This document shows, piece after piece, positions 18,567 through 55,364 of a stretch of 64,000 bases of DNA; position 1 is the first letter of the stretch; every line of letters starts with the position of its first letter. The translations under genes and the position numbers were made by a program. The notes beneath the pieces are model-generated. The model did no database searches. It had not been told where the DNA came from and saw only the letters and a program-made list of their open reading frames with translations. This stretch comes from Moniliophthora roreri. Taxonomy: Eukaryota; Basidiomycota; Agaricomycetes; Agaricales; Marasmiaceae. Where the stretch lies: the NCBI GenBank assembly GCA_001466705.2, contig LATX02000020.1, positions 1 through 64,000 of the forward strand, read 5' to 3'.

Positions 18567-20027
18567 TTATGCACGGAAGCACTGGGTGTCTTGCCAGACT
18601 TGGGTAGCGAAGCACTAGATGTCAATGTAATTAGCGCCCCTTCGCTGCTTGTCTTATTAAAAGCTTACATTGTAGTTGTCGGCATTGACAAGTTGGTCGT
18701 CAGCATAAAGGTCCTGGTCATCCCCGCACCCATAGCTGACATCAATAGTCGAAGAAACAGCGTGGGTGAGCTGTTGAGAGCTGAATCAGAGTCATATATG
18801 TCGATGTATGAGTGGACTAACCTCATGGAGAGCAGTGCCACCACGGATGTTCCTCTCGCTAACGCTGGTTGCTCCAGTGCAAAGATCGTTCTGGGGTACC
18901 TCGTCGAAAAAGATCGGGCAGAAGAAAATCTATGAAATGGGAACTAAATTGGTACGGCACGGATAAAGACTAGATAATCAACTCACGTTTGTGTCGGCTA
19001 TAACAGTGAAAGCAATCACATTGGGGTGCGAAGCGCAATAATTGTAAGGGTCGTTGCAGTCCAAACTAAAATTGACTAGTCAGCACAATGGAAAGCATCT
19101 GTCAATTTACAACCCACGTTCTGTTAGGGTCATTCTCCGTTGCAGCTAGGGTGAGTTTGTTCTCCACTGCTGCAGGGTCGTTGTTCTTGAAGTATGACCT
19201 GAAGAGAGAATTTTGCCGGTTATCATTAATATACTTTGCGGCTGCCGCAGCCAATGCCTGTCCCTCGAAGTGTCTGCAGTAAAAATTAATACACAGCACT
19301 TTGTTTGATGCGGATGTACTTACGCGGCATCGATGAAAGCCTTCTTTGCAGGATCATTGCAAGTGTTTGTGGCACGCTTGGCCATCTCGCGCTTCTCGAG
19401 TTGATCGGTAACATTGACTTCGACGGCGTCGGAAGAGACTTGGACTCGTTCAAATTGAGCGAGACTGGACAGCTTGTCGTTAGAACTGCTGGTGACATAG
19501 AACGATGTCACAGGTTCAAAGCGGAAGGTTCCAGTTCCGGCAGATGCGAAGTCGAAGAGGTCGGTAACTATTGAAATTCTTCAGTATCACCGACTATGTA
19601 TCACTAGATTGGAAACCTGACCATCGTGATCAACAGTGACGCTCTGTCCTGCGGGAATGGAGACAAAGGACGAGTCATCGGGCTTGTCGAGGGAAACTTG
19701 GAGCTAATGATCCACGGTTAGCACATAATGATGATGTGTTGGATGTGTCTGACTGACCTTGATACCGGTGAATTGGACGTCTTCACCGTCTTTGGTGACT
19801 GCAAACGAACGAGTGGGCAGGCTACTGTCGAGGATAGTGCCGTACTTGAGGATCTTCACGTCCTCCGAGCCTGTGTTTTTGACTGTTGCCTTGAATTTGA
19901 GCTGATTAACGTCGCTGACAGGACCAGTAGGACCAGTAACGTCAACGGTGAGACCACTGGACCTCTTCATGGGGCCGGCGAAAATGGTGCTGGCGAGAAC
20001 GAGAGCAACAAAAGCAGAGCGAAACAT
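18567..20027 (-). CDS. Secreted M35 metalloprotease (deuterolysin / peptidyl-Lys type)
   Basis: The start at 20025-20027 gives a signal peptide, MFRSAFVALVLASTIFAGP. A propeptide-like beta-rich region follows, with GLTVDVTGPTGPVSD and VKNTGSEDVKILKYG. The catalytic domain follows CNDPAKKAFIDAA. The zinc site HELTH is split by an intron: HE at 18822-18827 and LTH at 18762-18770, with 51 bp between. It is followed by SSTIDVSYG, corresponding to the GTxDxxYG aspzincin motif that supplies the third zinc ligand (Asp). The protein ends CFATQVWQDTQCFRA, stop at 18567-18569. About seven introns of near 50-60 bp were placed by eye and keep the frame open. The enzyme is a secreted zinc endopeptidase; fungal members serve extracellular protein degradation. 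All key residues are present. A TATA box lies 64 bp upstream. Confidence 0.92.
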
Positions 20028-20090
20028 GTCTGAGGAGGTGAGAAGAGACTTTGGATGAGTCCTGCGTCCTTGAAGTTCCCTACCCGTAGT

Positions 20091-20097
20091 TTTTATA
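20091..20097 (-). promoter_or_regulatory. TATA box of the M35 protease gene
   Basis: TATAAAA on the minus strand lies 64 bp upstream of the chosen start codon. This supports a strong, TATA-driven promoter and the start at 20027 rather than an upstream Met. Confidence 0.6.
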
Positions 20098-20309
20098 GGT
20101 TTATTTTCACGGCAGTAGATGCTGGATGGTTCGTTAAGCACGGTTAACAGTAACCCGAATTTCGGAAATGTCAGACGCCAGACTCCAGGGCTTCCATCCA
20201 AGAAGGCGAGGCATTATCGCTGCCCTGTATTACGTTCAAGGCGAGATTAGTGTCCAGACATACTCAGTTGATTCTGAGCCAAATACCTTCTGCAAATACG
20301 TCGAATACT

Positions 20310-37747: not shown

Positions 37748-37752
37748 ATTTC

Positions 37753-37921
37753 TGTAAAGAGGTGCACACTCAAGATCTGAGGAATGTAGTGTTGGATTGA
37801 AAATACGACTAGCTAGCATACAAGATGAATGTAAGAGAAGAAGAAGGAAGATAATGTATGTAAATAGTAGAATCTATATATGAGGTGAATGGGGCATGGG
37901 AAGCTAACCGTCATAGTTACA
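37753..37921 (-). repeat. 3' LTR of element A
   Basis: It reads TGTAACTATGACGG on the minus strand at its start and ends CCTCTTTACA, so it has TG..CA ends. It is about 95 percent identical to 55191-55359. Confidence 0.9.
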
Positions 37922-37989
37922 CTCTCCCCCAATCAAAAGCAAGCATACCCTCCCAAGAAACCAGAATTGAGAGTACCAATAAGAGAAAA

Positions 37990-40900
37990 GAGATCAGTTC
38001 TGTGCTAAAACATCAGGGCTGTCACCACCCTATGAGTACCAAGTATCCAACATGGCGCAGTCCTTGAGTGACAAATATGAAAGCCACTCATTGTGCAGGT
38101 GGAAAACCTACCTACTGCACTAGAAACTGCCATCCACATCTGTGCCATCGAGAATCAAGGATCCAGTCGATACAATATTCATCTAGACTGTTAACTACAA
38201 CAGGCTTGGGGACAGGCAACGTTTGACCCAGGAAAAGCCTGTCATCGTTGTGTACATACCGACGAAGCTCAGATACATAGAAGACAGGAAAGGTGCTTGG
38301 ATGTCAAGGCATATTCAGAGTGTAGCAATCTATCTCTGGATGGGCCTCCATGACCTTGTAAGGGCCATTGAAACGGGGGAAGAACTTAGCAACTCAATTT
38401 TCTCCCTTTTTTAGGTATTTCCAATGATGATGGACTGTCATTACCATAACCCAGTCACTGACATCAAAACAGTCCTGTCAGCCTGAAAGCCTTGCAGGAC
38501 TTTCAAAGCAAAGAGGTTATCCTTGGCCTCATGTTCCATCAAATACATCTGCTCAAGGAAATACTCTGCAGCAGCAGTGTCCTCTGACACTTTTAGAGTC
38601 TCAGGCAAATTTCCAGAGATGAGAGGAGGGATTATCCAAGGTGAGTGTCCAGTCTTCAACTTGAACATTGACAGCCCAGTAGAAGCTATGACACTGTTTA
38701 TAATGTGGAAGCAGATGTGGGGCAGAGCCTTAGACCACCCCTTTTGATTATGCTCCACATGAAAACAGATGCTCTGGTTGATGGTCCAATTACTTCTTTC
38801 AGATATTCTATTAGTCTCCAGGTGAAAGGCTAATGACATCTTCAAATCCATCCCCAACAAGTGGTGGAGCACACACCAGAATTTTGACACAAAAAGCTTG
38901 TCACAGTCAGATACAATATTAGTAGAAAGTCTGTTTTCACAGTACCAGTTGTCGAAAAACAGGGCAGCGAACTCTTCTGCTATTGTGCTAGTGCAGCAAG
39001 GAATCAGTTGAATATCCGAGTGTAGCTGATCTGTAATAGAAGCAATGCAGTTGAAGCCATTGTCTTCTGGTAAGAGTCTAATGAAATTGATGTCTATAGA
39101 GTTGCATCTGTGGTTAGGAACAGGTAACAGGTGTAGGGGCCCTTTAGATGATCTTCCATAGCTTTTGTTGTGTTAACAAGAGTCACAACTGGGAACATAT
39201 GCCTGGTACAGATCACAGTGCATACCCAGCCAGAAATAAGAGTCCCTGAGCAATGCATAGCACTTATCAGCACAAAAGTGTCCTGCCAAACTGTGTGCCA
39301 GCCAATATGGGTTCTCATAGAGGTTTTTCACTTTTAGTATGACCAGTCTGTCAGCAATATACTACAAGCCATTACAAAGTGAAATACCCAGTACTATTGC
39401 AGAACGTTTAGAGCAAAAATCATCAGCAGCATACCTAGACTTTATATCATCCAGGAAAGCTCTATCTGAGGAAATTTCCATGACAGCATTAACTGACAGC
39501 CAACCATTGGAAGGCTCAGCTGGACAAGTGACAGCGATGGAAGCAGATGTCGTTTCTGAAGGATAGCACCCTAGAGGTACATGGGAAAGGGCATCAGCTG
39601 CTGTATTATCAGTGCCCCTTATGTAGCCAATAGTCAAATCAAATTGTGAGAGGAATTCCTGCCACTGAAGTTGACATCTACTAAGATCCTTCTGTGTCTC
39701 AAAATTCTCAAGGGTGCAGTGATCCATCATCACATAAACTGTTGATCCTAAACAGGTCAGAGCACCACTTCTTTAGTGCATATATGATGGCAAGGAGCTC
39801 TTTCTCATGCATAGGGTAATTAGCTGCAGCTTCAGAAATTTGTTGTGAATCAAAGGCAACCAGCCTTGCAGAAGGCAAGTCCAGGCCCCACATAAGTACT
39901 GCTCCTGTATGCCAGTCAGATGTGTCACAAACAAGGAAGATCTTGCTATCACCCAGGTTCTCATGACCAATCAATACAAGCACTTTGTGCGAGGAAACCA
40001 AGTCCTTGATTTGAGTGAAGGCAAGCTTGTGATGGTGTGTCCAAGGTGGAAAATTTTTATCTGCACTCTAACCAAGTGAGAGGTGTGAGGTGATGTGTAT
40101 GCTCGGCCAGGTTTGGGCAGAAGTCAGCAACAAAATGAACAAGACCCAGGAAATGTTGGACCTCCTCCACATTCTAAGGCCACAGAAAGGCAGAGACTGC
40201 TTCAACCTTGGATTTCTGAGCCTGAATACTATGCTGTGATACATGATGATCCAAGAAATCTAATTCTAGCAGGAAGAAGGCATATTTATGAGAGTTACAG
40301 TATAATCTGGTGTCACAGAGAGTCTGCAGAATAAGCTCAACATGTTGTTCATGCTCCTCAACAGATTCAGACAAAATAACAATGTCATCTAAGTATACAT
40401 GGCAAAAGTAGCCAATGTAAGGCCTTAAAGTAGCCATCACATGCCGCTGCTGAACAGCAGGTGAGTTTCGGAAACCTTGAGGCATTACAGTCCACTCGAA
40501 AAGACCATAAGGAGTTTGGACCACAAAATAAGGTATTGCATCTTCAGCAAGATGAGTCTGGAAGAAAAAATCCATCATGTCCATCTTGCCCCAAATCTTA
40601 CTCTTAGAGCAGTCAGCAAGAATATCCTCAATCAGAGGCAGTGGGTATCTATCAGGCACTGTATTGGTGTTTAACTGTCAGAAATTGTTAACCCAATAGT
40701 AGTTACCACTCAATTTAGGCACCAGAAATGCCAGGCTTGCAAACTGAGATGTGGCCAGACTTGAGAGCCTTATCCAGCAGGATATCCCATGCTGCATGAA
40801 GCTTCCAGGGAGATTGATAGGAGTGTGTCTGAATTGTTTTGTATATATCTTTCAAATGGATTGAACAAGTGATATCAGTAGATAGCATGTCCACATGAGG

Positions 40901-41935
40901 AATAGGCTCAAAAACTTCTTTATATTTGCACTTCAAGTCATTAGAACATGCAGTCAATGAAGACTGAAAAGCCAGCATATCAATATGTCCATATACAGCC
41001 ACTATGCAGCCTACATTATGCATGATTTCTTCTGGACAAAGGCCAACAGATCTTCTCAGTGACAGGACAGCTCTGAGCTCACACAACATAGCTGAATAAG
41101 ATTTCATAATACTATATTGCCAACCAGCAGCATCCAAATTACTGCAGCAGGCTTCTTGGGCTAAAGTATGACATGCTACAGGTGGAGATACAATGGGAGG
41201 TACAGGTCTAGGTACAGGGGATATGTCAGGATGTAGGAGATCAAAACCAGAGGGTCTGTGTATAATGGAACTGAATTTGAGGTCACATATTAAAGAATTG
41301 TAAGCTAAAAAGAGGAGACCAAGAATCATGGGAATACAGAGAGAGTCAACCACAACAGCCCAAACAGTATAAGAGGTCCAACAACCATAAGGGTCAGACA
41401 GCTTCAGACAAACAAAATGAGATGAAGAACAAGAACTGGAACCTGCAGAATTGAATGCCACACCGAAAACTTCAGGTTTATGGAGCCTTTCGAGATGTAG
41501 GCCTAGGTGCTCAAAAAGATCTCTGCAAATTAGGACAAGATGTGAGCCATCATCTGCAAGAAGCTCAACTTCAATAGGTGTAGCCAAACGAGGGCCAATG
41601 AGCAAGGCCCTCCACATGAGGTGTGACATATGAAGAGGCTGCTTCTTCAGAGCAGAAGCTGTGACTCAGATAGGCTGGCATCATGCAGTGTGCACAGAAA
41701 CAACAGGGTCTGGACATATCTCAGGAGGAGCAGAATCTGCATGTTGACATTTAGAAGCAGGCTGAAGAGTCATTGAGTGAGACAAAACCTTGCATAAATG
41801 TTTGTTGGAAGCATCTTGGGCCTCAGATGTCTGATGTCTAGGTTCCATAGCAGGCACAGAGCCATGAGAGTCATGTGAAGTGGGGACAGGTGATGGAGAC
41901 AGAGGCAGGGAAGACTGACAAGAAATGTTACTCCT
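37990..41935 (-). pseudogene. Element A pol: protease, RT, RNase H, integrase, chromodomain remnant
   Basis: In minus-strand order: an aspartic protease-like domain with LLADDGSHLVLI (41560-41500), DDG standing where D-S/T-G is usual, and later LGLLFLAYN. Next is reverse transcriptase from about 40730, with MPDRYPLPLIEDILAD, TPYGLFEWTVMPQGFRNSPA and YLDDIVI (catalytic YxDD, about 40400). RNase H at 40001-39708 has CDTSDWHTGAVL and YPMHEKELLAIIYALKKW. A connection domain and decayed zinc-binding region follow. The integrase core and tail (38913-38441) has SDCDKLFVSKFW and NQSICFHVEHNQKGW. A degraded chromodomain-like end, with DEYCIDWILDSR near 38180, closes it. Many stops and frameshifts break the polyprotein. 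Confidence 0.9.
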
Positions 41936-41940
41936 GCAAT

Positions 41941-43695
41941 AATTTGTCTAAGATAAGACTAGTGGAAAACTACCTCAAAAGATAACCTCCAAAAGTCTAA
42001 CTCAGGTTGTTGTGCAAGTGTGGATTGATGTGATCAGAGTTGCTGCACTTAGAATGCCAACAAAACTCTTAGCTAGGTTGATTCTCTCTTATTGAAGCAA
42101 TCTACTTCAAAGTGTTCACCTCCAGAGGAGTATATATGGGTTTTAAAAGAGTTTATATTCAAACACACAAACACACACACAAGAACACAGTGCACAAAGC
42201 ACAAAACACAAGAGCTACAGTCCCACCAAAAGACTCAGTAGCCGATATAGTCTGACTCTATGGAGTTCAAGACTTCTTTAAGACAACTACAGTACACAGT
42301 GTACTGGAAAAGGTCCTAGACCAGTTTCTACAAAGAGCTTAATCACAGGCCCAATTCCTTTGTTAAGACTCTAAGTGTGTCACAACCTGATACCCAACAC
42401 AGGCCACACTCTAAGTGCCCAAGGCTCCTTCTTGGTGTAAAGTCTCTCTTAGAAAAGTGCTACAACACACTTAAGATGTTATTCTTAGTCTCTTATGATG
42501 CAAGTTCATTATCAGATTCTATCTCTCTGGAGTCACTCAGGACCAATCTCCAGGGCCTGAAGTGAGGAAGCAAAACTGGAATGGCACACAAATTTATACA
42601 CTAAACAAACTCATCACGTATTCACAATCTGAGAGGGGCAGAGTTACTTGAATATCTATGAATATCTAGCTGTCCTTATATATGGTCCAAGAAATATATC
42701 TATAGAAAATATAAATAATGTCTGAGAATTCAGGAAATGATAAATGAGTGACTGAGATACTAAAAGAGGGAATATTTGGATATCATGGAGTCTAGCCACT
42801 AGGGTATCCGACCATATCCATGTGGGTATCTATGTCTCCAGGCATTCTGGACTCTATAATTTGTATTTTCTCTTTTCTAAGTCAGGTATCTACAAGTGGA
42901 TGGCTGTATCTGTTCCGTCTCTTTACAGCATTTCCCTTTCTAGTATCCACACATTGGCAGAAGCCTAGATGCCAAAGTTTCCAAGGTCAGAACATGCTGT
43001 TACTGTTTCTATCTCCTTTGACAATGCATGCTCAGTCTTATTTAGGACTTCTTATGTGTTAGATATTCTTCGTATGTCTCACTGTATCTGTCTGTAGGTA
43101 GTGGATGTCTTTTGGAAGTAAGTTCTATCTTTCCAAGAAAACTTTGTATCTAGTTAGTTTATCTTGTCTGTTTAGCCGCTGGTGCACTCTTTATTAAGAG
43201 ATTACCTGCTTTGACCTTGATCCATATATTGACTTCAGAGGAGGATCATTCAGTGATTGTTCCTGTTCTAAGTCATCTTTTCTGTTTTGATGTCTCCTCT
43301 AAGTACCTCTGTACTGTTTGACTGCAGATTGCACTTTGCAGATGTCATAGAAAGGTAAAGTAGAAATTAAAATCCCATTGATAGCACTTTGAGAGCTTTG
43401 TTAACTAGCCAATGCATTCATTGGGCTATAGTTAGGTTTCCTACAGGTTTTGAGAGTGATCCATTTTGGATCTGATACATAGATAAGTCAGAAAGTACAG
43501 CTTTAACACCTCCGTATAGTGTATCATATAGCTCTTTGTACTTTCCAAGGTACTATAGCTTCTCTAAGGCAATGACTAGCAGACTGGGCTCACTCTAGTC
43601 CTTATTACCTGTTATCTTGTGTCATATTAAAGTGTTCCAATTCAAAAGTAGTGTAAAATGAATAAAAGTGGGTCTTTTCTAGGTTTGACATATTA
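41941..43695 (+). mobile_element. R-family repeat copy R1, inserted in element A
   Basis: 1755 bp flanked by GCAAT on both sides (41936-41940 and 43696-43700), a 5-bp target duplication. The ends are inverted: AATTTGTC at the left and, on the other strand, TAATATGTC at the right, with TGTC..GACA inside, so it resembles a long solo LTR. It contains a TATA-like stretch, a CA-rich microsatellite (about 42160-42190) and no recognisable protein. Removing it rejoins the gag-pol frame of element A across the GCAAT site. The copy shares an almost perfectly identical 1-kb tract with R2. Confidence 0.85.
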
Positions 43696-43700
43696 GCAAT

Positions 43701-44518
43701 ACCCATTCTCATTGCTGCCAAAGACTGTGGTAACTGGAAGACAATGTGAATTGGAGGAGAGATGAGAGGAAGAGTGGGAACGGGAATGATATTCACAATT
43801 ATAAAGGTTATCTTGTGAAAGGTGGTCAATGTGGTGACCAAAAATTGCATTAACAGTAGGTACAGGTGCTGGAGGTGAATCTGGAATCTCTGTGATGGTG
43901 GCCAATATGCTGGAGGTAGCAGCAACGGCAGCTGTCTTCATCTCCTTCTTGAGTAAGGCTTTAAAGGAGATTGGGGCCTGCCCTCCAGCTGAAGGTGGTA
44001 TCGATGGGCATTCACACCATCTTCAGGAGTAATGCAATGAACAGGGGATGTCGAAGAGCTGTAGACTCCTGCATCCAACTTTGGTCTTCCAATGATCAGA
44101 GTAAAAGTCATGGCATTTGAAACAACCTTGGTGCTTGTGGAGGACTGCATGCTCTGCATTGTTTAGCAGGCCACAGACATATGTGCCTGAACCAGTCTGG
44201 GAATTGCTCACAGAATGAGTAGCAGAAGAAAGCTTTACCAAGCACATTTTCGAGTTGTAGGCTGAAGAGAAGGTGAGAAGACTATACTTGGACTTGTAAT
44301 CCTTGACAAAGGAGTCAAAGTGCACTTTAGCAGAAGCTTTCTGCAGAGTGTCTCAAGTATAGAAGGCACTATCATATTCCATAGCCTTCTGGGCCCATTG
44401 AGCACAGGGGAGTGCAGATGATACCTGTTTATCCTTCAGGTAGGCACAATATGCATCTAAAATACTGAGCTGGGCATGAACCTTGAGCCTCTCATCAGTC
44501 TGGTAATATTGAGTACCC
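43701..44518 (-). pseudogene. Element A gag, 3' part with zinc knuckle
   Basis: Minus strand. It begins LKGTQYYQTDERLK directly at the B insertion site, continues with a helical region (LSILDAYCAYLKDKQ, WAQKAMEYDSAFYT) and a Gag zinc knuckle-like motif CFKCHDFYSDH followed by a Cys (about 44130-44080). It runs to the R1 insertion site with GSNENGYC. A stop follows DSAFYT. Together with 54152-54802 it forms one Gag interrupted by element B. Confidence 0.85.
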
Positions 44519-44523
44519 TTCAG

Positions 44524-44942
44524 TGTTACATTCCCCTGTCTTTTCCTATGCTTCTCTTTCCCCTCAGACCTATTACACCTTTCCAGTCTCCTTTTTCGTT
44601 CTACATTATATGCTTCCCCCTCTATCAGACAAATACACTATTCCTGCTCCCTTCTCTATCTCATTGTACTTCTTATATGCCAATGTCTTCACTATTCATT
44701 AACAATCACCGACTTCTTTGCTATATATTGATATAGTAATTACAAGATCAGTTGTACTTATTTAAGCACTCAAGCAGAGACAGGAACTCTAGCTTGATCT
44801 AGTTAATTATAACTTGTGTTTAAACCAATGATGAAGGACCTCTGAACTTCAACAACAGTTAAATGAACTCAAACTTGAACTTGAAGCTATCTCGACTTGC
44901 CTTTTGTTGAGTTAGTAGTAATGTTGCTGCACAAGTAACGTT
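44524..44942 (+). repeat. 5' LTR of element B, split by R2
   Basis: It starts TGTTACATTCCCC and runs to CAAGTAACGT, where R2 interrupts it. The last bases TAACA appear after R2 at about 46695-46699. The TGTTA..TAACA ends form the LTR inverted termini. Confidence 0.85.
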
Positions 44943-46691
44943 AATTTGTCTAAGTTAGGACTAGTGGAAAACTACCCAAAAAGATAACCTCCAAAAGTCT
45001 AACTCAGTTGTTGTGCAAGTGTGGATCAACATGATCAGAGTTACTGCACTTAAAATGCCAACAAAACTCTTAGCTAGGTTGATTCTCTCTTATTGAAGTG
45101 TTCTACTTTACAGTGTTCACCTCCAGAGGAGTATAGGTGGATTTAAAATGGGTTTATTGGGCAAACACACACACAAAACACAAAGAACACGGTGCACAAA
45201 GCACAAACACAAGAGCTACAGTCTCATACAAAGACTCAATAGCCGATATAGTCTGACCCTATGGAGTTCAAGACTTCTTCAAGATAAATACAGCACACAG
45301 TGTACTGGAAAAGGTCCTAGACCAATTTCTACAAAGAGCTCAGTGCAGGCACACCTCTTGCTAAGACTCTAAGTGTGTCACAATCTGATACACACACAGG
45401 CCACACTTCAAGTGCCCAAGGCTCCTTCTTGGTGTAAAGTCTCTCTTAGAAAAGTGCTATAACACACTCAAGAAGTTACTCTTATCTCTTATGACACAAG
45501 TTCATTATCAGATTTCTATCTCTCTGGAGTCACTCAGGACCAATCTCCAGGGCCTGTAGTAAGGAAGCAAAACTGGAATGGCACACAAATTTATACACCA
45601 AACAAACTCGTCATGTATTCACAATCAGAGGGGGCAGAGTTACTTGAATATCTATGAATATCTAGCTGTCCTTATATATGGTCCAAGAAATATATCTATA
45701 GAAAATATAAATAATGTCTGAGAATTCAGGAAATGATAAATGAGTGACTGAGATACTAAAAGAGGGAATATTTGGATATCATGGAGTCTAGCCACTAGGG
45801 TATCCGACCATATCCATGTGGGTATCTATGTCTCCAGGCATTCTGGACTCTATAATTTGTATTTTCTCTTTTCTAAGTCAGGTATCTACAAGTGGATGGC
45901 TGTATCTGTTCCGTCTCTTTACAGCATTTCCCTTTCTAGTATCCACACATTGGCAGAAGCCTAGATGCCAAAGTTTCCAAGGTCAGAACATGCTGTTACT
46001 GTTTCTATCTCCTTTGACAATGCATGCTCAGTCTTATTTAGGACTTCTTATGTGTTAGATATTCTTCGTATGTCTCACTGTATCTGTCTGTAGGTAGTGG
46101 ATGTCTTTTGGAAGTAAGTTCTATCTTTCCAAGAAAACTTTGTATCTAGTTAGTTTATCTTGTCTGTTTAGCCGCTGGTGCACTCTTTATTAAGAGATTA
46201 CCTGCTTTGACCTTGATCCATATATTGACTTCAGAGGAGGATCATTCAGTGATTGTTCCTGTTCTAAGTCATCTTTTCTGTTTTGATGTCTCCTCTAAGT
46301 ACCTCTGTACTGTTTGACTGCAGATTGCACTTTGCAGATGTCATAGAAAGGTAAAGTAGAAATTAAAATCCCATTGATAGCACTTTGAGAGCTTTGTTAA
46401 CTAGCCAATGCATTCATTGGGCTATAGTTAGGTTTCCTACAGGTTTTGAGAGTGATCCATTTTGGATCTGATACATAGATAAGTCAGAAAGTACAGCTTT
46501 AACACCTCCGTATAGTGTATCATATAGCTCTTTGTACTTTCCAAGGTACTATAGCTTCTCTAAGGCAATGACTAGCAGACTGGGCTCACTCTAGTCCTTA
46601 TTACCTGTTATCTTGTGTCATATTAAAGTGTTCCAATTCAGAAATAGTGTAAAATGAATAAAAGTAGGTCTCTTCTAGGTTCAACATATTA
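44943..46691 (+). mobile_element. R-family repeat copy R2, inserted in the B 5' LTR
   Basis: 1749 bp aligned end to end with R1 at an offset of 2996 bp in the 3' part. It is flanked by ACGTT (left) and ATGTA (right), consistent with a decayed ACGTA target duplication. The related solo LTR at 36052 shows the undisturbed sequence GTAATGTAACA at this point. There are no coding features. Confidence 0.8.
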
Positions 46692-46699
46692 ATGTAACA

Positions 46700-48140
46700 C
46701 AAGATCAAGCTGATTGATTGCTAACCTCTCGAGGTTTAGGCATTACATAAAGGAAAGACTATGGTGCCTCCAAAGACAGAATGGCAACTTGAACAGGACA
46801 TCACAGAGGCAGAAGAATGGTAGCATAGATTACAAACCCAATTGATATTGAACCCAGGTGGATGAGTGATCCCACCATTAACCAGAGCATCCCACAGGGA
46901 ACTCCTGACCCTCTTGCAGTTGCCATTGCTAGAGAGTCATCCTCCAATCAAGACTGCTGAAAGACTAACAGAAACAAAGAGAACCTTAACTCCATTATTC
47001 ACCACAGTTGAATCAGAAGGGAAAGAATCCGAAGACAATACCTCTCAGCATATGTTGAAGAAGGAAGACTTGGATATATCTACTACCTCATTACCATCAG
47101 CAGAGGAATAAGACCCCTTCAAAAAACTCCTCACAGCGCTCAAGAACAGTCCCAGACCGAAGAAGCAACCCCAGATTGAAGAAATGGCTGAAGACAAGAA
47201 ACCATCAGGAAGCAGACCAAAAGTGGAACCAGAGGTAGAGGAAACAAAGATAGGCACCATGGTACCCATACAGATAGTAGCAGCTGAAAAAGAAGTGAAG
47301 GTGGCACTGCCTCAAGCATTTACAGGACAATGAAAGGAAGCCAAGAGGTTTCTCAGGGAAGTCCTCCTATATGTCACCCTCAACCCCAAAACCTTCACTA
47401 GTGACAGAACGAAGAAGCTCTTCTTGTTATCTTATATGACAGACAGGCCTGGGGAATTCTCGAAAAACAAGAAGATGGACCTATTACTGGCAAATGATGC
47501 TGAAGCTGAAAAGGTCACTTGGGCTGAGTTTGTTGAGGACTTCAAGCTATCCTTCAAACCATTGGACACTACCTTAGAGGCCCAGATGAAGCTTAGAGAC
47601 TTGAAGATGAAGGAGAGGATCAATGAATATATGTACCAATTCACCTATCTGGCTAAAAAAACAGGATATAATAATGCAGCATAAATCGAGGCGTTCAAAT
47701 GAGGATTACCAAGAAGCCTCATGCTGAAAATCATGACCTGACCAGAAAGGAAGCCAGAAACTATAAAGGAATAGATAAACACAGCAATCCTGTTCAATGA
47801 AAGCTACAAACAGGCAATGGAATATGGAAAAAGATAGGACAAAGATAATAGAAGAAAGCTGCAGTGGACCTTCCAGAAGAAAGAAGAAACAGCAGTAAAA
47901 AGGATTATGGAAGTTGACAGGAAGGAATACATGGCCAAAGGGCTTTGCTTCCAATGTGGAAGAAATGGCCACTGCATCAAAGATTGTCCAGATGGGGCTA
48001 AGAAAGAAGGGAAGAAGGAAGAGACTAGGAGGCTGACAAAGGAAGAAAGGTTCACAAAGATCTAGGCCTTAATAAATGAACAAACAGACGAAGAAAAGAA
48101 TCAACTTTTGGACCTCATGGAACAAACAGGTTTTTGAAGC
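46700..48140 (+). pseudogene. Element B gag
   Basis: The plus-strand frame runs through KTEWQLEQDITEAEEW, an acidic/basic N-terminal region, then a retrotransposon Gag core with ALPQAFTGQ, EAKRFLREVLLYVTLNP and WAEFVEDFKLSFKPLDTTL, and MKERINEYMYQFTYLAKKTG. It ends with a CCHC zinc knuckle CFQCGRNGHCIKDC at about 47948-47990. Gag would form the particle that packages element RNA. Stops at several CAG/CGA-type positions (for example after FTGQ and YNNAA) break it, in keeping with C-to-T decay. Confidence 0.88.
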
Positions 48141-48189
48141 AGCAGAAAAGAACAACGTCTTTACTGCCCATAATTATTTCACACTTTGT

Positions 48190-48702
48190 ACTAGCTAAAA
48201 TCAATTGAAATTCTATGCACCTTCCTCTGCAATACAAAGTGAGAAATCAAATTGTTGAAACCCAAGTATTACTAGACTCCAGAGCAGGAGGAAGATTCAT
48301 CAGTCCAACGATGGCCAAGAAGTTGAGGAAGAAATGGGAAAAAATCCCAGAGCAGATTAAGGTATTCAATGTAAATGGAACTCTGAACAAAACCGCCTGA
48401 ATATCGCATGCAGTCAAGGTCAAATTTCAGATACAAGGAAAAAGCTTCAAGGAGAACTTCTTGATCTCAGGGATTGGAGAAGAAGAAATGATCTTGGGAC
48501 TCCATTGGTTGAGGTTTCACAACCCCAAGATCAATTTGGAAACAGGAGAAATGGAATTCCCTCCAAGAAGGAAGATCTAGATCAAACAATTTGTAGGGAT
48601 ACTGGACAGCACCCCCGAAGAAGTACTCATTGGAGCAAAAATAATGGCATCACAAGAGCTTGCACACCAAAAGGAGGAAACAAAGAGAAGCATTGATGAC
48701 AC
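48190..48702 (+). pseudogene. Element B aspartic protease region
   Basis: The sequence QVLLDSRAGGRFISPTMAKK corresponds to the retropepsin active site. The usual D-S-G is D-S-R here (Gly to Arg), which would inactivate it. EEMILGLHWLRFHNPKI, the second conserved protease block, follows. The frame continues to DDTT, where a 718-bp inverted-repeat element interrupts it. Confidence 0.85.
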
Positions 48703-48708
48703 TACATA

Positions 48709-49426
48709 TAAGGTGTTCTTTTAACATGGTATTCTGATTAAGAAAGCACTTAATCTTCTTTCAAAGAGAATTCTTATAAAAACATATATAAATTCTAAAT
48801 TTCAATTGTGTCCTCTCAACAAGAATATGCCTGGAGAACACTGAATTTTCAGCAGCAAAAGATATGGAATTTTCAAATTCTGAGAGTTAGTAGATAATAC
48901 AATATATTAAAATAATTTCTATACTGGGAAAACATTAAATTTTCTCTGGTTGAAGATGCTTAGAAAATGCTGATAAGATAAGATAAAAATACCACATTTT
49001 CTGTTGTGGGAAAGTCAGAGAAAACACTAGGAAAACACTAGGAAAATAGTAGGAAAATCATGTGAAAACACTATATTTTAAAGCAGTTTTGAGATAGTTT
49101 TCATATAGTTTTCCTTTTGTATTTAACATGTTTCCTTTGATATAAAATTCAAAATCTTATATTTGTTTTCTCACTATTCTATAAGGCAGAAAATTGAGTA
49201 TATCTGTAATTAGAAAATTAAAGGATAATTCTGTAATTTCATTATTATAAAATTATCAAAAAACATGGACTCTTCTGGAAATTAAAATCCAGAGTATGCT
49301 TGCTGTTTTCACTGTGTGATAATAACTTGAAACTAATAGAATTTTCTGAGTGTTGTCTGGAAGCAAATATATAGCAGTATTCTGAGTGTATTTCCTTTGT
49401 ATTAATAGCATAAAAAGAACACCTTG
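48709..49426. mobile_element. AT-rich inverted-repeat element inside element B
   Basis: 718 bp bounded by TAAGGTGTTCTTTT at the left and the inverted CAAGGTGTTCTTTT at the right, flanked by the direct repeat TACATA (48703-48708 and 49427-49432). It is very AT-rich and non-coding. After removal, the B pol frame continues with CELIPLYLQEYRSHFEK and IELKPDFVPQNCKLYPLSP, the expected segment before the RT. A non-autonomous DNA transposon of uncertain superfamily (6-bp duplication). Confidence 0.75.
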
Positions 49427-49432
49427 TACATA

Positions 49433-52330
49433 GTGTGAATTAATTCCATTGTATCTCCAAGAGTATCGAAGCCATTTTGAAAAAGGAAAATCCAAACATT
49501 TTCTTCTGTCCAGAATGTATGATCATGCAATTGAACTTAAACCAGATTTTGTCCCTCAAAACTGCAAGCTTTACCCACTAAGTCCTTAGATGAGAGCAGG
49601 ACAAATTTCTAGAAGAAAACTTATGAAAAGGGTACATCAGGAAATCAAAGTCACCAATGGTGTCACCCTTCTTCTTTGTAGCAAAGCAGGAGAAAGGAGC
49701 TTTATGGCCAAATCAAGATTATTGGGAACTCAACAAAGGAACAATCAAGAACACCTACCCATTACCACTTGTATCCAAGTTATTGGACAAGTTGAAGGGA
49801 GCAACAATCTTCAGTAAGCTAGACCTTCAAAACAGTTACAATAATGTTCAGATCAAAGATGGTAATCAATGGAAAGCTGCCTTCAAGACAAATAGGGGGC
49901 TTTTCATACCAACTGTGATGTTCTTTGGGCTTAGCAACTCACCAGCCACATTCCAAGCATTTATGAACAATATACTTTCTGACTTCATTAATGAAGGATG
50001 GTCTGTTGTTTATATGGATGACATTCTTCTCTTCTCAAAGAACCCAGAGGACCATCGTGAACAGACTGAGAGGCTAATGCGAAGAATTCAGAAACACAAT
50101 CTTTACCTAAAACTAGAGAAGTGCAAGTTCGATGTTACAGAAGTAGTCTTCTTGGGAATAGTTATCTGACTGGGCTATGTTGCCATGGATCCCATCAAGC
50201 TTGCAGGAATAGCCGATTGGGAAGCTCCCAGAACTGTCAAAAGTGTATAAAGCTTTTTAGAGTTTGGAAACTTCTATTGAAAATTCATTGGGAGGTACTC
50301 TCATATAGCCAAACCCCTCCACAACCTCACAAAGAAATTACAAAGATTTAAACAGACCCCAGAATGCCAAACATTATTTAAACTTCTGAAACAAAAATTG
50401 CTTTCAGGGCCAGTGTTAATAATGCCCAATACCAACAAACCATTTGTAATAGAAGCAGATGCATCTAAATAGGCAACCAGAGCAGTATTGCGACAACAGG
50501 GAATGGATGGGGAATGGAATCCATGTGGTTACCTGTTGAAGTCCTTATCTCCTATGGAACAAAACTATGAAATCTATGACCAGGAACTATTGGCAATTGT
50601 ATGAACATTGACCGAATGGCATCATTACTTAATGGAAGGGAAACACAAGGTTGTCATCCTTTCTGGTCACAAAAACCTTACGTACTTTCAAACAGCACAG
50701 AAACTCAACCAAAGGCAGGCCAGATAGAGCCTCTTCTTATTATAATTTGACCTTGTGCTAGTTCATGTGCCTGGAAAGAACATGACGCAGGCTGATGCCC
50801 TTTCAAGGAGAACAAATGAATGTGATGATGAAGAGAATGATAATGACAACATGGTTCTCCTACCAGAACATCTATTTGTATGAGGAATAAACCTGGAGTT
50901 GGGAGAAGAGATCAGAGAATGATTGGGCCCAGACAACTTCCACAGGTCGGCCTTGGAAATGTTGTTACACCAAGGCATGCTGCCAATCAAATCAGCATTG
51001 TCTGATTGAGAAATCAAAAATGATTTATTACTCTTCCAAGGACAGGTATATGTGCCGAACAATACTAAACTAAGAAGGTTGATCATACAAATGATCCATG
51101 AAGTACCAGGGGTCAGACATCCAGGACAATAGAATACATTAGAACAGGTACAATGGGACTTTTGGTGGCCCAGAATGGCTAAATTCATTGTAAGCTTTGT
51201 GGATGGATGTGTGCCTTGTCAGCAGATGAAGGTAAACACCCATCTGACCAGAACCCTGATTCAGCTGATCAAACCAATGGAAAATTCGTTTCCATTCTAA
51301 GTTTGCACTATGAATCTGATTACTGACCTACCAGAGAGCAATGGATTCAATTGTATTTTTGTCGTGGTGGACCACTCCTCTACAAAGAGGGTAATTTTTA
51401 CTCCATGCACAAAGACAATAGATGTGTTGGAAATTGCAGAGATATTAATTCAGCAACTATACAAAAGATTCAGACTTTCTGACCACATCATTTTGGATCA
51501 AGACCCCAGATTCACTGCAGAAGTCTTCCAAGAAATGGGAAAACAATTATCTATAAAGCATTCCATGAGTACCACTTTCCACTTACAAATAGATGGAGAA
51601 ACTGAGAGAGTCAACCAGAAAATTGAACTCTACCTTCAAATCTTCTGTGCAAAGGAACAAACCTGTTGGAAGGAATTCCTACCTCTTGCAGAATTTGCTC
51701 ACAACAACAGGACTCATTCAATGCTTAAGAAGTCCCCATTCTTCATGATGATAGGTTACCACCCAAGAGCGCTCCCCACAATATTTACAAAAACAAACAT
51801 TCCATCAGTGGAGGAAAGACTCTTGGAGTTAAAGAGAGTACAAGAAGAAACAACAATTCTGTTGGAGCTAGCAAGACAATAGATGATAAGAAGAGAAAAA
51901 CAAAAACTGGACACCTTCGAAGTAGGTCAGAAGATGTGGCTTGAAGAAAAGAACCTGATTATTGGGTATCCTTCCAAAAAGCTCACCCCGAAAAGAGAAG
52001 AACCCTTTTCAATATCCAAAGTAATGGGACTAGTAACATACAGGTTGGAGCTCCCACACCAATGGAAAATACATCTGGTGTTCCATGTGGCATTACTGTC
52101 CCCATACAAACAAACAGCAGCACATGGACCAAGTTTCACAGAACCTCCACCTGATCTCATTGAAGAATTTGAAGAGTATGAAGTAGATGCCATTGTTGGA
52201 CATAGGCCAAAGAAGCAGCCTAGAGAATTCCTGGTGTCCTATACAGGGTACAATTCTTCTCATAACTGATGGATCGAAACCGAGGGAATGGTCAACTGCT
52301 TGGATCTCTATAAGAATTATATAAAGCACC
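49433..52330 (+). pseudogene. Element B pol: RT, RNase H, integrase, chromodomain
   Basis: The RT at 49657-50169 has IFSKLDLQNSYNNVQI, FGLSNSPATFQAFMN and the catalytic YMDD at about 50011-50022. RNase H (50395-50790) has VIEADASK, then EIYDQELLAIV and [14 protein letters not shown]. The integrase zinc-binding region (about 50960-51240) has IHEVPGVRHPGQ and CVPCQQMK. The catalytic core carries FVVVDHSS, ILDQDPRFTAEVF and DGETERVNQ (the D, D, E positions). A chromodomain at about 52165-52325 has EYEVDAIVGHRP, REFLVSYTGYN and WIETEGMVN. Chromodomains of this type can direct insertion to heterochromatin, which fits a nested home. Several stops occur (for example after ADASK and before WIETEG). 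Confidence 0.92.
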
Positions 52331-53734
52331 ATTGGCTGAATCCTCAAGACCCCATTTCCACTCCATAACATATCTACCAATGTGTCTGCTTCCACTTCTG
52401 GTTCTGGTTCTTCTGCTAGTCACCAAGCACAAGGACTCCCAAGCCCTACTCTGACTGAAGCTGGAGAAGGAAGGTATGGTGAGAATATCACCTATCACCA
52501 TGGCCTTCATCCAAACCCCTATCAATTCCTCCACCTCTTCAACTCCTAGCAGTATGACCAACAGATCTGAAATGCAGCTAATTCCAACAACCAACTGGAA
52601 CCCACTGTCAAAAGCCTCTTTTTTCTACAGGCCCAACACCACCTACTTGAAAAGGTCACTAAGAGTTGCAACCTTGAAATCACTAATCAGGTTCTCTTTG
52701 TGTGCAACTATGGAATAGGTCTGGAAGGGCCTGTTATGGTACCGTCTACATTCCCATATCACCCACACCTATCCATGCCCCCTCCCACAGATCCCTGAGC
52801 AGCTTCCAAATATCCTGACCCAAATACTCTCAGTCTTCTTGACAGACTCAGACAATGAATGGATGGGAATGGATACCCCCGACCTTCCCTTCAGGAATGA
52901 ATCACCTTCCCCCCTGCTTCATCCACCAAATCTGCTTCTGACTATGCCCTCCTTTATTCTGAACCCACTCCTGATCCTGACATTAAACCAAAAATCAAAC
53001 ATGCTCTTCAAAGGGTCCCCACTCCCGACACCCTCGTTGTTGATGCCAGCCATCTGGTTCAATCTGCAGGTTGAGGAAGGTGTGGCAGCCAGAGAAGGAG
53101 AGGAGGAAGAAGAGAACAAGCCCCCTCAATCCCCACACCTATTTATGCTTGAACTACCTGCTGACCACTGACCGAGCAACAGATCGCCACTGCCAATTCC
53201 AGTAGAGACATGGATGGACTGCACCTCTGCCTTGTGTGTAAACTGGACTGCTATCTCCTCTGAAACTGGTTGAGCTACTTTTGTAGGCAATGCCTCCACT
53301 ATGTGCCTGGACATATCACTGCTGGGTGCACTGTCCGCCAATAGTCTTCAAGACTTTTGCATGAAAGGGTTGGTCTGGATAGTGGCACTCTGTCAGACTA
53401 TAACAATTATAATGATGACAGATACGACAATCATGATGGAGAATGATGATCAGACATTCATTATTGATACAGATCAAGAGCAGAGGGAATTTATATTTAT
53501 GGGGGTAGATCTGAAAAAGGTTAGACTAACTAACGTCAAGAAAGGGGTTGCGGAGAGGATGATGGAGGGATGGCAACCAGGAGTATCACAGAGGGAGGTA
53601 ACAACAGAGGAGGAGATGCTGGAGTGGGCTCCCGAAGAGTCGCAGGAGTACAATAGTGAGTTGTACAGTGATGGAGAGTCTTAGAATGTCTAGAGCTGGA
53701 ATCTAGACCTTAACAGAGGGGTAATGTTATGTTC
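52331..53734 (+). pseudogene. Element B extra 3' region with cysteine-rich tail
   Basis: About 1.4 kb between the chromodomain and the 3' LTR is unusually long for the family. A Pro/Ser/Thr-rich frame is followed at about 53220-53335 by LHLCLVCKLDCYLL and CRQCLHYVPGHITAGC, a CxxC...CxxC...H...C cluster that looks like a zinc knuckle. An acidic stretch with AERMMEGWQPG and TEEEMLEWAPEE sits at 53550-53650. Stops interrupt it. It may be a second ORF or a C-terminal extension of the polyprotein. The polypurine tract CAGAGGGG lies just before the LTR. Confidence 0.55.
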
Positions 53735-54146
53735 CTCCATCTTTTCCTATGCTTCTCTTTCCCCTCAGACCTATTACATCTTCCCAGTCCCCTTTTTCAT
53801 TCTACACCATATGCTTCCCCCTCTATCAGACAAATACACTATCCCCGCTTCCTTCTCTATCTCATTGTACTTCTTATATGCCAATGTTTTTGCTATTTAT
53901 TAACAATTACTGACTCCTTCGCTATATATCGATATAGTAATTACAAGATTGGTTGTACTTATTTAAGCACTCAAGCAGAGACAGGAACTCTAGCTTGACC
54001 TAGTTAATTATAACTTGTGTTTAAAGCAACAATGAAGGACCTCTGAACTTCAACAACAGTTGAACAAACTCAAACTTGAACTTGAAGCTATCTTGACTTG
54101 TCTTTTGTCAAGTTAGTGGTAACGTTGCTGCATAAGTAACATAATA
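53735..54146 (+). repeat. 3' LTR of element B
   Basis: It starts TGTTATGTTCC and ends GCATAAGTAACATAATA at the TTCAG target duplication. Differences from the 5' LTR are numerous and mostly C/T or A/G. Confidence 0.88.
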
Positions 54147-54151
54147 TTCAG

Positions 54152-54802
54152 AGCTGCATTCAAGGCTTTCAAGGCAGACCAGTAATTGGAGAACAGCATT
54201 TGATCCTGCTTTATGGAATCCAAACGAGCACCAGCCTCGTCATCCCAGTCAATGCCAATAACAGCCTCTTTAAGTGAAGTAAGAAAAGAGGGGTCAGTCA
54301 CAGACCACTCCTTTGCCACAAGCTTGTCCCGGATGGCTATTAGCATGTTGGATAAACATGTGCTCTGAAATATTGAGAGAAATGCCAACTTGCATTCATA
54401 ATGGTCTTCAATTTGTTTGTGTTTAAGGTAAGACTCAACAAGAATGGCAGCATGTCCAAATGTTTCAAGAGAGATATAACCAGCGTTGACTGTTGGGAGC
54501 TTGTTGTAGCCATTGTCCACAAAGTCAGATTGAGGGGCCATGAAAATGTCTATAGATGAGTCAGAGGATGAAGAATCTGAGGAGTAGTCATGTGAACCTG
54601 GCTCAGAGGGAGCAGCAACAGGTTTGTGAGAGGGGTGTGAAGGGACAATAGGCAGGTCTTCATCCACTGTTGAGAGCACATCACTATTGGAGTCCAACTG
54701 TACACACAATGAGGAGTGAGTGACAATTCTTTTATTAATAGCAGAAGTAGGCTTCATTGCACAAGACGACTTGGGTTTCAAAGTAGATGACATGGATGCC
54801 AT
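54152..54802 (-). pseudogene. Element A gag, 5' part
   Basis: Minus-strand frame from MASMSSTLKPKSS. It has a Ser/Asp-rich region (HDYSSDSSSSDSSIDIF), then LPTVNAGYISLETFGHAA and the helical capsid-like segment KHKQIEDHYECKLAF and FSNYWSALKALNAAL. It ends at the B insertion point and resumes at 44518. No stop is seen in this 217-codon piece. Confidence 0.88.
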
Positions 54803-55190
54803 GATGATCTGTTGAAACATCTCAGAGATCAGGAAGAACTGGGAAAACAGGAGAACAGAGAGTATGCTATTGCAGTAGCACATGAGACAGGATGTGGGCA
54901 CTTAATAAGTGGCCCAAGGATTGGTCAAGGACCAGGCAAGAACATGAAAGGCGGGAAAATCCTATGTATATGCAGAAGCAAGACCATGCCCACTAAGGAA
55001 AGAGCCTGCCAAGGGAAGCAAACTTCAAATTTTCATAAAACTCACCTAGGTGAGATCAGGGCAGAGGAGAAAGGAGATGCCTAACAGGGCCAAGAATGGC
55101 TGGATGGAGGAAAAATGGACTAAAAGAGTGGGAAACTTACATACATATAAGCAGGGCAGGGGAAAACAATACAAATGACAGAAAAAAAAG

Positions 55191-55359
55191 CATAAAGAGG
55201 TGCACACTCAAGATCTAAGGAACATAGTGTTGGATTGGAAATATGACTAGCTAGCATACAAGATGAATGTAAGAGAAGAAGAAGGAAGATAATGTATGTA
55301 AATAGTAGAATCTATATATGAGGTGAATGGGGCATGGGAAGCTAACTGTCACAGTTACA
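55191..55359 (-). repeat. 5' LTR of element A
   Basis: Partner of 37753-37921. The outer bases adjoin the ATTTC target duplication at 55360-55364. Its inner terminal TG/CA pair is changed by transitions relative to the other LTR. Confidence 0.9.
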
Positions 55360-55364
55360 ATTTC

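What the first reader, a model, noticed from the sequence alone, without database searches (positions are those of the whole stretch)
37753..55359. Multi-level nest of mobile elements whose order can be read from target duplications
Element A (minus) has ATTTC duplications. Element B (plus) sits in the A gag with TTCAG duplications, and closing the gap restores Gag reading NAALKGT in frame. R1 sits in the A gag-pol with GCAAT, again restoring frame. R2 lies inside the B 5' LTR, and a 718-bp inverted-repeat element lies in the B pol with TACATA. The order is therefore A, then B and R1, then R2 and the small element. Every boundary is explained at base level.
Basis: seen in the sequence. Interest (0 to 1): 0.75.

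Follow-up and report, generated by a model that had tools for sequence, protein, structure and literature searches.

The report
Nested fungal transposons, boundaries partly corrected
A stretch of fungal DNA holds five mobile elements inserted into one another, which is real but ordinary; two of the reported boundaries were wrong, and one stretch shared by two of the elements looks recently copied or is an assembly error.

Summary
The nest is real. Window 37753-55359, probably Moniliophthora roreri, holds five nested elements, each flanked by a target duplication (TSD). A (Ty3/gypsy, minus) has ATTTC. B (Ty3/gypsy, plus) sits in A's gag with TTCAG; three independent natural A relatives lack B and align across the site with an exact 5-bp overlap.

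Two boundaries were wrong. (1) "TACATA" around the small element is not a TSD but inverted-repeat sequence (CACTAYRTAYRAGGTGTTCTTTT). The element is 736 bp (48700-49435) with TSD TGA: 21 of 25 measured family copies have exact 3-bp TSDs, and four B relatives show the empty site in register. It is a non-autonomous CACTA-type element; 830 such ends in the genome suggest roughly 400 copies.

New: R1 and R2 are identical over 1010 bp inside about 9% divergence: recent gene conversion or assembly error; some joins elsewhere in this assembly carry identical duplicates of that size.

Order holds: A first; B and R1 later; R2 and the CACTA element after B. B versus R1 and R1 versus R2 are undetermined. 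Ordinary in kind.

The parts
37753..55359 (-). Element A: Ty3/gypsy LTR retrotransposon, 17,607 bp with its guests; LTRs 37753-37921 and 55191-55359 (169 bp each)
   Evidence: LTR alignment, LTR ends; RT PF00078, RNase H PF17919 and integrase H2C2 PF17921 in Ty3/gypsy order on the minus strand; length without guests 6,219 bp, against about 6.3 kb between the outer LTR ends of the C117 relative (positions)
37748..37752 (.). A target duplication, left copy ATTTC
55360..55364 (.). A target duplication, right copy ATTTC
44524..54146 (+). Element B: Ty3/gypsy LTR retrotransposon inside A gag; 5' LTR from 44524 (interrupted by R2, ends 46699), 3' LTR 53725-54146
   Evidence: gag PF03732, RT PF00078 and integrase core PF00665 (below its curated cut-off) in that order; solved relatives of the RT piece include Ty3
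44519..44523 (.). B target duplication, left TTCAG
   Evidence: exact 5-bp overlap in 3 of 3 uninterrupted A relatives
54147..54151 (.). B target duplication, right TTCAG
41940..43695 (+). R1: 1,756-bp element TAATTTGTC...GACATATTA inserted in A (gag-pol region)
   Evidence: genome family, 79 matching places from the 40 candidates scored of 876; ends and flanks of 21 copies
41936..41939 (.). R1 target duplication, left GCAA
43696..43699 (.). R1 target duplication, right GCAA
44942..46691 (+). R2: 1,750-bp copy of the same family inserted near the end of the B 5' LTR (8 bases of LTR, the right duplication included, follow it)
   Evidence: uninterrupted LTR ends in L074-L077
44938..44941 (.). 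R2 target duplication, left ACGT
46692..46695 (.). R2 target duplication, right ATGT (one CpG-type transition from ACGT)
48700..49435 (+). 736-bp non-autonomous CACTA-type element in B pol; terminal inverted repeat CACTAYRTAYRAGGTGTTCTTTT
48697..48699 (.). CACTA element target duplication, left TGA
49436..49438 (.). CACTA element target duplication, right TGA
42635..43644 (+). R1 copy of a 1010-bp tract identical to 45631-46640 in R2
45631..46640 (+). R2 copy of the identical tract

Best explanation
An ordinary transposon graveyard. A Ty3/gypsy element (A) inserted in what is now single-copy sequence on its right side (ATTTC). A second Ty3/gypsy element (B) integrated into A's gag (TTCAG), and a copy (R1) of a high-copy 1.75-kb non-coding element integrated into A's gag-pol region (GCAA). 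Later another R copy (R2) integrated near the end of B's 5' LTR (ACGT, now ACGT/ATGT), and a 736-bp non-autonomous CACTA-type element integrated into B's pol (TGA). Shown: boundaries, duplications, nesting, and empty sites for B, R2 and the CACTA element in natural relatives. Inferred: integrase-mediated insertion of A and B, mobilisation of R and of the CACTA element in trans by transposases encoded elsewhere, and CpG-type decay afterwards.
For: TSDs at all five elements (R2's with one mismatch). Uninterrupted relatives with one copy of the target: B site in 3 of 3 independent A relatives; CACTA site in register in 4 of 4 B relatives fetched, with TGA in L070, L071, L073 and CAA in L072 (L070 and L071 are identical around the site, so three independent copies); R2 site in four B-family LTR ends L074-L077. 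Family-wide TSDs. CACTA-type ends 419 + 411 in the genome against 0 + 1 for the reversed control pattern. RT-RNase H-integrase order in A and gag-RT-integrase order in B. An M. roreri MCA 2997 protein, from another assembly, is 98% identical over 59% of an A pol ORF, whereas this genome's two other copies of an overlapping stretch are 74-75% identical in DNA, so A is probably also present in that isolate.
Against: At the R1 site both relatives carry 21 nt that A lacks, so a small deletion accompanied or preceded R1, or the relatives gained it. The B LTRs (39 of 409 differ) look older than the A LTRs (7 of 166) although B is younger (Fisher p = 0.04); after masking CpG-type doublets it is 18 of 305 against 3 of 122, p = 0.21. 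R2's TSD has one mismatch; 7 of 21 R copies and 4 of 25 CACTA-family copies show no duplication within the limits used. The assembly has single-N joins with duplicated sequence elsewhere, though none lies inside the nest. No empty site for A itself was available.
Confidence: 0.95

Rival explanations
1. The 1010-bp identity between R1 and R2 is a recent non-crossover gene conversion between two neighbouring direct copies, so R1 and R2 no longer carry independent clocks.
For: Identical over 1010 bp (42635-43644 / 45631-46640) but 67 differences in 736 aligned bases outside; log10 probability of that much identity at uniform divergence about -42. Divergence stands on both sides of the tract, and R1 and R2 each keep fitting TSDs at both ends, so no crossover. 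The tract in each is 88-93% identical to the 20 other aligned copies.
Against: Zero differences means the event would be very recent compared with the divergence outside. The two other neighbouring direct pairs with long identical runs have other causes: the C76 pair is a tandem duplication with shared left flank, and the C22 tract runs on through 333 of 333 identical flank bases to an assembly N. An inverted neighbouring pair (C93) shows no such tract.
Confidence: 0.4
2. The 1010-bp identity is an assembly error: one R core was filled or corrected with sequence of its neighbour.
For: This assembly joins contigs with single Ns. At 5 of 20 N positions examined (19 distinct, since L012 and L013 share one) in 14 of the 15 R-family loci that hold an N, 670-1141 bp abutting the N on one side repeats the other side at 99.85-100%, about the size of the tract. 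R is a very high-copy repeat.
Against: No N lies in the nest, and the tract is internal, with R1- and R2-specific sequence on both sides. At most of the 20 N positions the neighbouring R sequence is only 86-98% alike or not similar at all, as separate copies would be.
Confidence: 0.55
3. R1 and R2 are solo LTRs of a long-LTR retrotransposon rather than a terminal-inverted-repeat element.
For: Short duplications, no long reading frame, high copy number.
Against: Ends are TAAT...ATTA, not TG...CA. 14 of 21 copies carry fitting 4-bp flanks on both sides (at most one mismatch). The right flanks of the other 7 share no common start, apart from the C22 pair.
Confidence: 0.2
4. The whole nest is a misassembly.
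For: Repeat-rich draft assembly with single-N joins.
Against: Five duplications fit at both ends, and relatives show the empty sites of three of the five elements.
Confidence: 0.03

Closest known systems
Ty3/gypsy LTR retrotransposons (Metaviridae)
   Same: LTRs, 5-bp duplications, RT-RNase H-integrase order (A) and gag-RT-integrase order (B)
   Different: Both copies are degenerate and interrupted; A shows no complement of 9 nt or more between its LTR and the 42 bases after it, so its priming is unresolved
Tf1/sushi group of self-priming Ty3/gypsy elements
   Same: The bases just after the window's B 5' LTR are complementary over 10 nt to a stretch inside that LTR; the same site in four relatives is complementary over 10 nt to the matching stretch of the window's B 3' LTR. 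Tf1's first 11 RNA bases pair with its primer site (PMC7175516, passages)
   Different: The transcription start of B is unknown and the relatives' own LTR stretches were not fetched, so self-priming is only suggested
CACTA (En/Spm) non-autonomous elements, such as pvCACTA1 of bean (PMC4938662, passages)
   Same: 5'-CACTA terminus, 3-bp duplication, small, no coding capacity, high copy number; inverted repeat of about 23 bp, within the 10-54 bp given there for the superfamily
   Different: pvCACTA1 has inverted repeats over 150 bp and AT-rich duplications; here the transposase partner is not linked: Plavaka-type matches (PF18759) lie at 37 places, some of them pieces of one gene, but were not tied to these ends
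Nested LTR retrotransposons of plants and fungi (PMC6911290, search listing with start of abstract)
   Same: Younger elements interrupt older ones
   Different: Nothing in kind; the R1/R2 identical tract is the only unusual feature

Membership tests
Ty3/gypsy LTR retrotransposon (A) | LTR pair with short target duplication | tested here: met
Ty3/gypsy LTR retrotransposon (A) | integrase downstream of RT and RNase H | tested here: met
   RT 40174-40659, RNase H 39708-40067, integrase zinc-binding domain 39173-39361, all minus strand; no integrase core match in the 243-aa frame downstream
Ty3/gypsy LTR retrotransposon (B) | gag, RT, then integrase between LTRs with duplication | tested here: met
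   gag 47334-47684, RT 49657-50169, integrase 51310-51882 at E 2e-6 but under the curated cut-off, TTCAG
Tf1/sushi self-priming group (B) | primer site complementary to the first bases of the transcript | tested here: inconclusive
   10-nt complement to an LTR-internal stretch; transcript start unknown
CACTA superfamily (48700-49435) | CACTA terminus in inverted repeat | tested here: met
   window ends CACTACATA and, on the other strand, CACTATGTA; 23 of 25 measured copies begin CACTA and 2 begin TACTA; 830 ends in the genome
CACTA superfamily (48700-49435) | 3-bp target duplication | tested here: met
   21 of 25 copies exact; shuffled mean 1.8, maximum 7; empty site in register in L070-L073
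CACTA superfamily (48700-49435) | mobilised by a CACTA-type transposase | tested here: inconclusive
   Plavaka PF18759 matches at 37 places; not linked to these ends
LTR (R1, R2 as solo LTRs) | TG...CA ends | tested here: not met
   left end TAATTTGTC in 20 of 21 copies and TAATTAGTC in one; right end ATTA in 21 of 21
Terminal-inverted-repeat DNA element (R1, R2) | inverted ends with constant-length duplication | tested here: met
   short inverted ends (TAATTTGTC, and TAATATGTC on the other strand, with variants); 4-bp duplication exact in 7 of 21 and with one mismatch in 7 more; superfamily unassigned

The most novel reading that the evidence does not exclude
Neighbouring direct R copies in this haploid, reportedly asexual fungus are being homogenised by non-crossover gene conversion over about 1-kb tracts, so that elements nested at different times carry identical cores and neither LTR nor copy divergence can date the nest. 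R itself would be a very high-copy 1.75-kb element family with 9-bp inverted ends and a 4-bp duplication that I could place in no superfamily.
Probability: 0.35. Interest if true: 0.45.

Novelty: new member of a known kind. Interest (0 to 1): 0.22.

Why it matters
It is a clean worked example of reading insertion order from duplications, and a caution: an inverted repeat that happens to contain the same six letters at both ends can pass for a duplication until family copies and empty sites are compared. The 1010-bp identical tract shows why sequence divergence should not be used as a clock in such nests without read evidence. The CACTA-type family (roughly 400 copies) and the R family would be useful entries in a Moniliophthora repeat library; two paper searches that paired Moniliophthora with CACTA or MITE brought up no description of either family in their listings, which is a weak test.

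Tried and rejected
TACATA as a target duplication: rejected, since the corresponding bases (TAYRTA) stand inside the inverted repeat in the 25 copies measured, with real 3-bp duplications outside in 21, and relatives resume at TGA.

GCAAT as a 5-bp duplication: rejected in favour of GCAA.

R as solo LTR: disfavoured. Internal repeats in R that would suggest a miniature retrotransposon: only two imperfect 18-20-nt direct pairs and no inverted pair at the settings used. Coding capacity of R1: of four frames of 50 aa or more that overlap it, the two wholly inside have 62 and 80 aa; the other two run out of R1 into A.

LTR divergence as a contradiction to the nest order: not significant after CpG masking.

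RNA families in the window: none at gathering score.

Empty site of A: the right flank 55365-56165 matches only itself in the genome, so no paralogous empty site could be compared; the left flank was not searched.

More A relatives at the R1 site: only two other matches were found.

Copies dropped before counts: of 30 R loci fetched 22 were aligned and 21 used for duplications; L020 and the others left out are partial matches. Among the 25, L047/L068 and L058/L060 have the same or mirrored flanks and are probably duplicated segments, so independent copies number about 23. In one search, 14 of the 15 R loci with an N were examined (L011 was not).
Full report
What is there. The window lies in a 59.4-Mb genome of 154 contigs. 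The host is probably Moniliophthora roreri: of two protein matches to an A reading frame one is an M. roreri MCA 2997 protein, 98% identical over 59% of the query, and the other is 41% identical; the size fits the 56.8-59.6 Mb of published M. roreri long-read assemblies (PMC10468315: abstract, passages and section 8). M. roreri was reported to hold more LTR elements than M. perniciosa (PMC3948071, passages); CACTA, hAT and Tc1/mariner elements were reported in M. perniciosa (PMC2644716, passages).

Element A (minus, 37753-55359) is a Ty3/gypsy element with ATTTC duplications, RT, and RNase H and integrase zinc-binding domains in Ty3/gypsy order; the 243-aa frame downstream gave no Pfam match. 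Taking the lengths of its guests and one duplication each from its span leaves 6,219 bp; the C117 relative spans about 6.3 kb between its outer LTR ends (from positions).

Element B (plus, 44524-54146) is a Ty3/gypsy element in A's gag. Three independent A relatives (L002 on C34, L003 on C117, L005/L006 on C143) lack B; the left flank ending at 44523 and the right flank starting at 54147 overlap in each by exactly five bases, the place of TTCAG. In L002 a stop follows directly.

R1 and R2. Both belong to a large family: the first look gave 876 candidates, of which 40 were scored, giving 79 matching places. In 21 full copies the left end is TAATTTGTC (TAATTAGTC in one) and the right end ATTA, with 4-bp duplications (7 exact, 7 with one mismatch; at most one mismatch in shuffled pairs: mean 4.6, maximum 13 in 2000 shuffles). 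In 7 of 21 no duplication shows. Four uninterrupted B-family LTR ends (L074-L077) read AGGTAACATAACA, AAGTAACGTAACA, AAGTAACATAACA and AAGTAACATAACA: one copy of the duplication site where the window has two, apart from point differences. At the R1 site both relatives that cover it, L003 and L006, carry 21 nt (7 codons) that A lacks; whether that loss preceded R1 is open.

The small element. Measured family copies begin CACTA (23 of 25) or TACTA (2 of 25) and have 3-bp duplications: 21 of 25 exact, shuffled mean 1.8, maximum 7. In the window the element is 48700-49435 with TGA on both sides. Four of four B relatives fetched show the empty site in register: over 25 bases the left flank is identical at 23, 23, 17 and 19 and the right flank, sharing the same three bases, at 21, 21, 18 and 19 in L070, L071, L072 and L073; the shared bases are TGA in three and CAA in L072 (BLAST pieces, where only L073's two pieces themselves overlap). 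L070 and L071 are identical around the site, so these are three independent copies. The pattern of the inverted repeat, one mismatch allowed, occurs 419 times forward and 411 times reverse, against 0 and 1 for the reversed control, so roughly 400 copies. A CACTA terminus, inverted repeats and a 3-bp duplication mark the superfamily (PMC4938662, passages). Plavaka-type transposase matches lie at 37 places, some of them pieces of one gene, but were not linked to these ends.

The R1/R2 tract. Between 42635-43644 and 45631-46640 R1 and R2 are identical over 1010 bp. Outside it they differ at 61 of 685 and 6 of 51 aligned bases. Among 231 pairs of 22 R copies only three have identical runs over 177 bp (1373, 1010 and 776 bp), and all three are neighbours on one contig in the same orientation. 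The C76 pair is a tandem duplication that shares its left flank, and the C22 tract continues through 333 of 333 identical flank bases to an N. The assembly uses single-N joins; at 5 of 20 N positions in 14 loci (19 distinct positions) 670-1141 bp of identical or nearly identical sequence stands on both sides, while at the others the two sides are less alike or unlike. The tract may therefore be gene conversion (0.40) or an assembly error (0.55). In Podospora, conversion among retrotransposon LTRs has been inferred (PMC10787394, passages).

Clocks. B LTRs differ at 39 of 409 positions, 38 of them transitions and 21 in CpG-type context; A LTRs at 7 of 166. Taken at face value the younger element looks older (Fisher p = 0.04); after masking CpG-type doublets it is 18 of 305 against 3 of 122, p = 0.21. 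Cytosine methylation and deamination would explain the excess of transitions; this is inference.

Priming. The bases after the window's B 5' LTR are complementary over 10 nt to a stretch in that LTR; in L074-L077 the same site is complementary over 10 nt to the matching stretch of the window's B 3' LTR. This resembles the self-priming Tf1/sushi group (PMC7175516, passages), but the transcript start is unknown. A shows no such complement of 9 nt or more.

Order. A precedes B and R1; B precedes R2 and the CACTA element. The order of B and R1, of R1 and R2, and of R2 and the CACTA element cannot be read from nesting.

Verdict. A real and well-documented nest of known kinds of elements, with two corrected boundaries and one unresolved identical tract. 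Interest is modest.

Noticed in passing
42635-43644 and 45631-46640: 1010-bp stretch identical between R1 and R2 inside about 9% divergence; gene conversion or assembly error
   Followed up: partly
L002:1429-2892 (C34): An A-family copy whose gag ends directly at an inverted A-family LTR: probably another nest, A into A
   Followed up: no
L020:1480-1540 (C67): A B-family LTR end runs directly into an R copy that lacks its first 57 bases
   Followed up: no
L027, L034, L019, L024 (C76, C124, C12, C153): Single-N joins with 670-1141 bp of identical or nearly identical sequence on both sides, probably unmerged contig overlaps that would inflate repeat counts
   Followed up: yes
46702-46711 and 44791-44800: 10-nt complement between the stretch after the B 5' LTR and the LTR itself: possible self-priming
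   Followed up: partly
19704-20201 minus: Start of a deuterolysin-type (M35) metalloprotease gene outside the nest (Pfam PF02102)
   Followed up: no
2464 and 6537: Single Ns in the window, likely assembly joins
   Followed up: no
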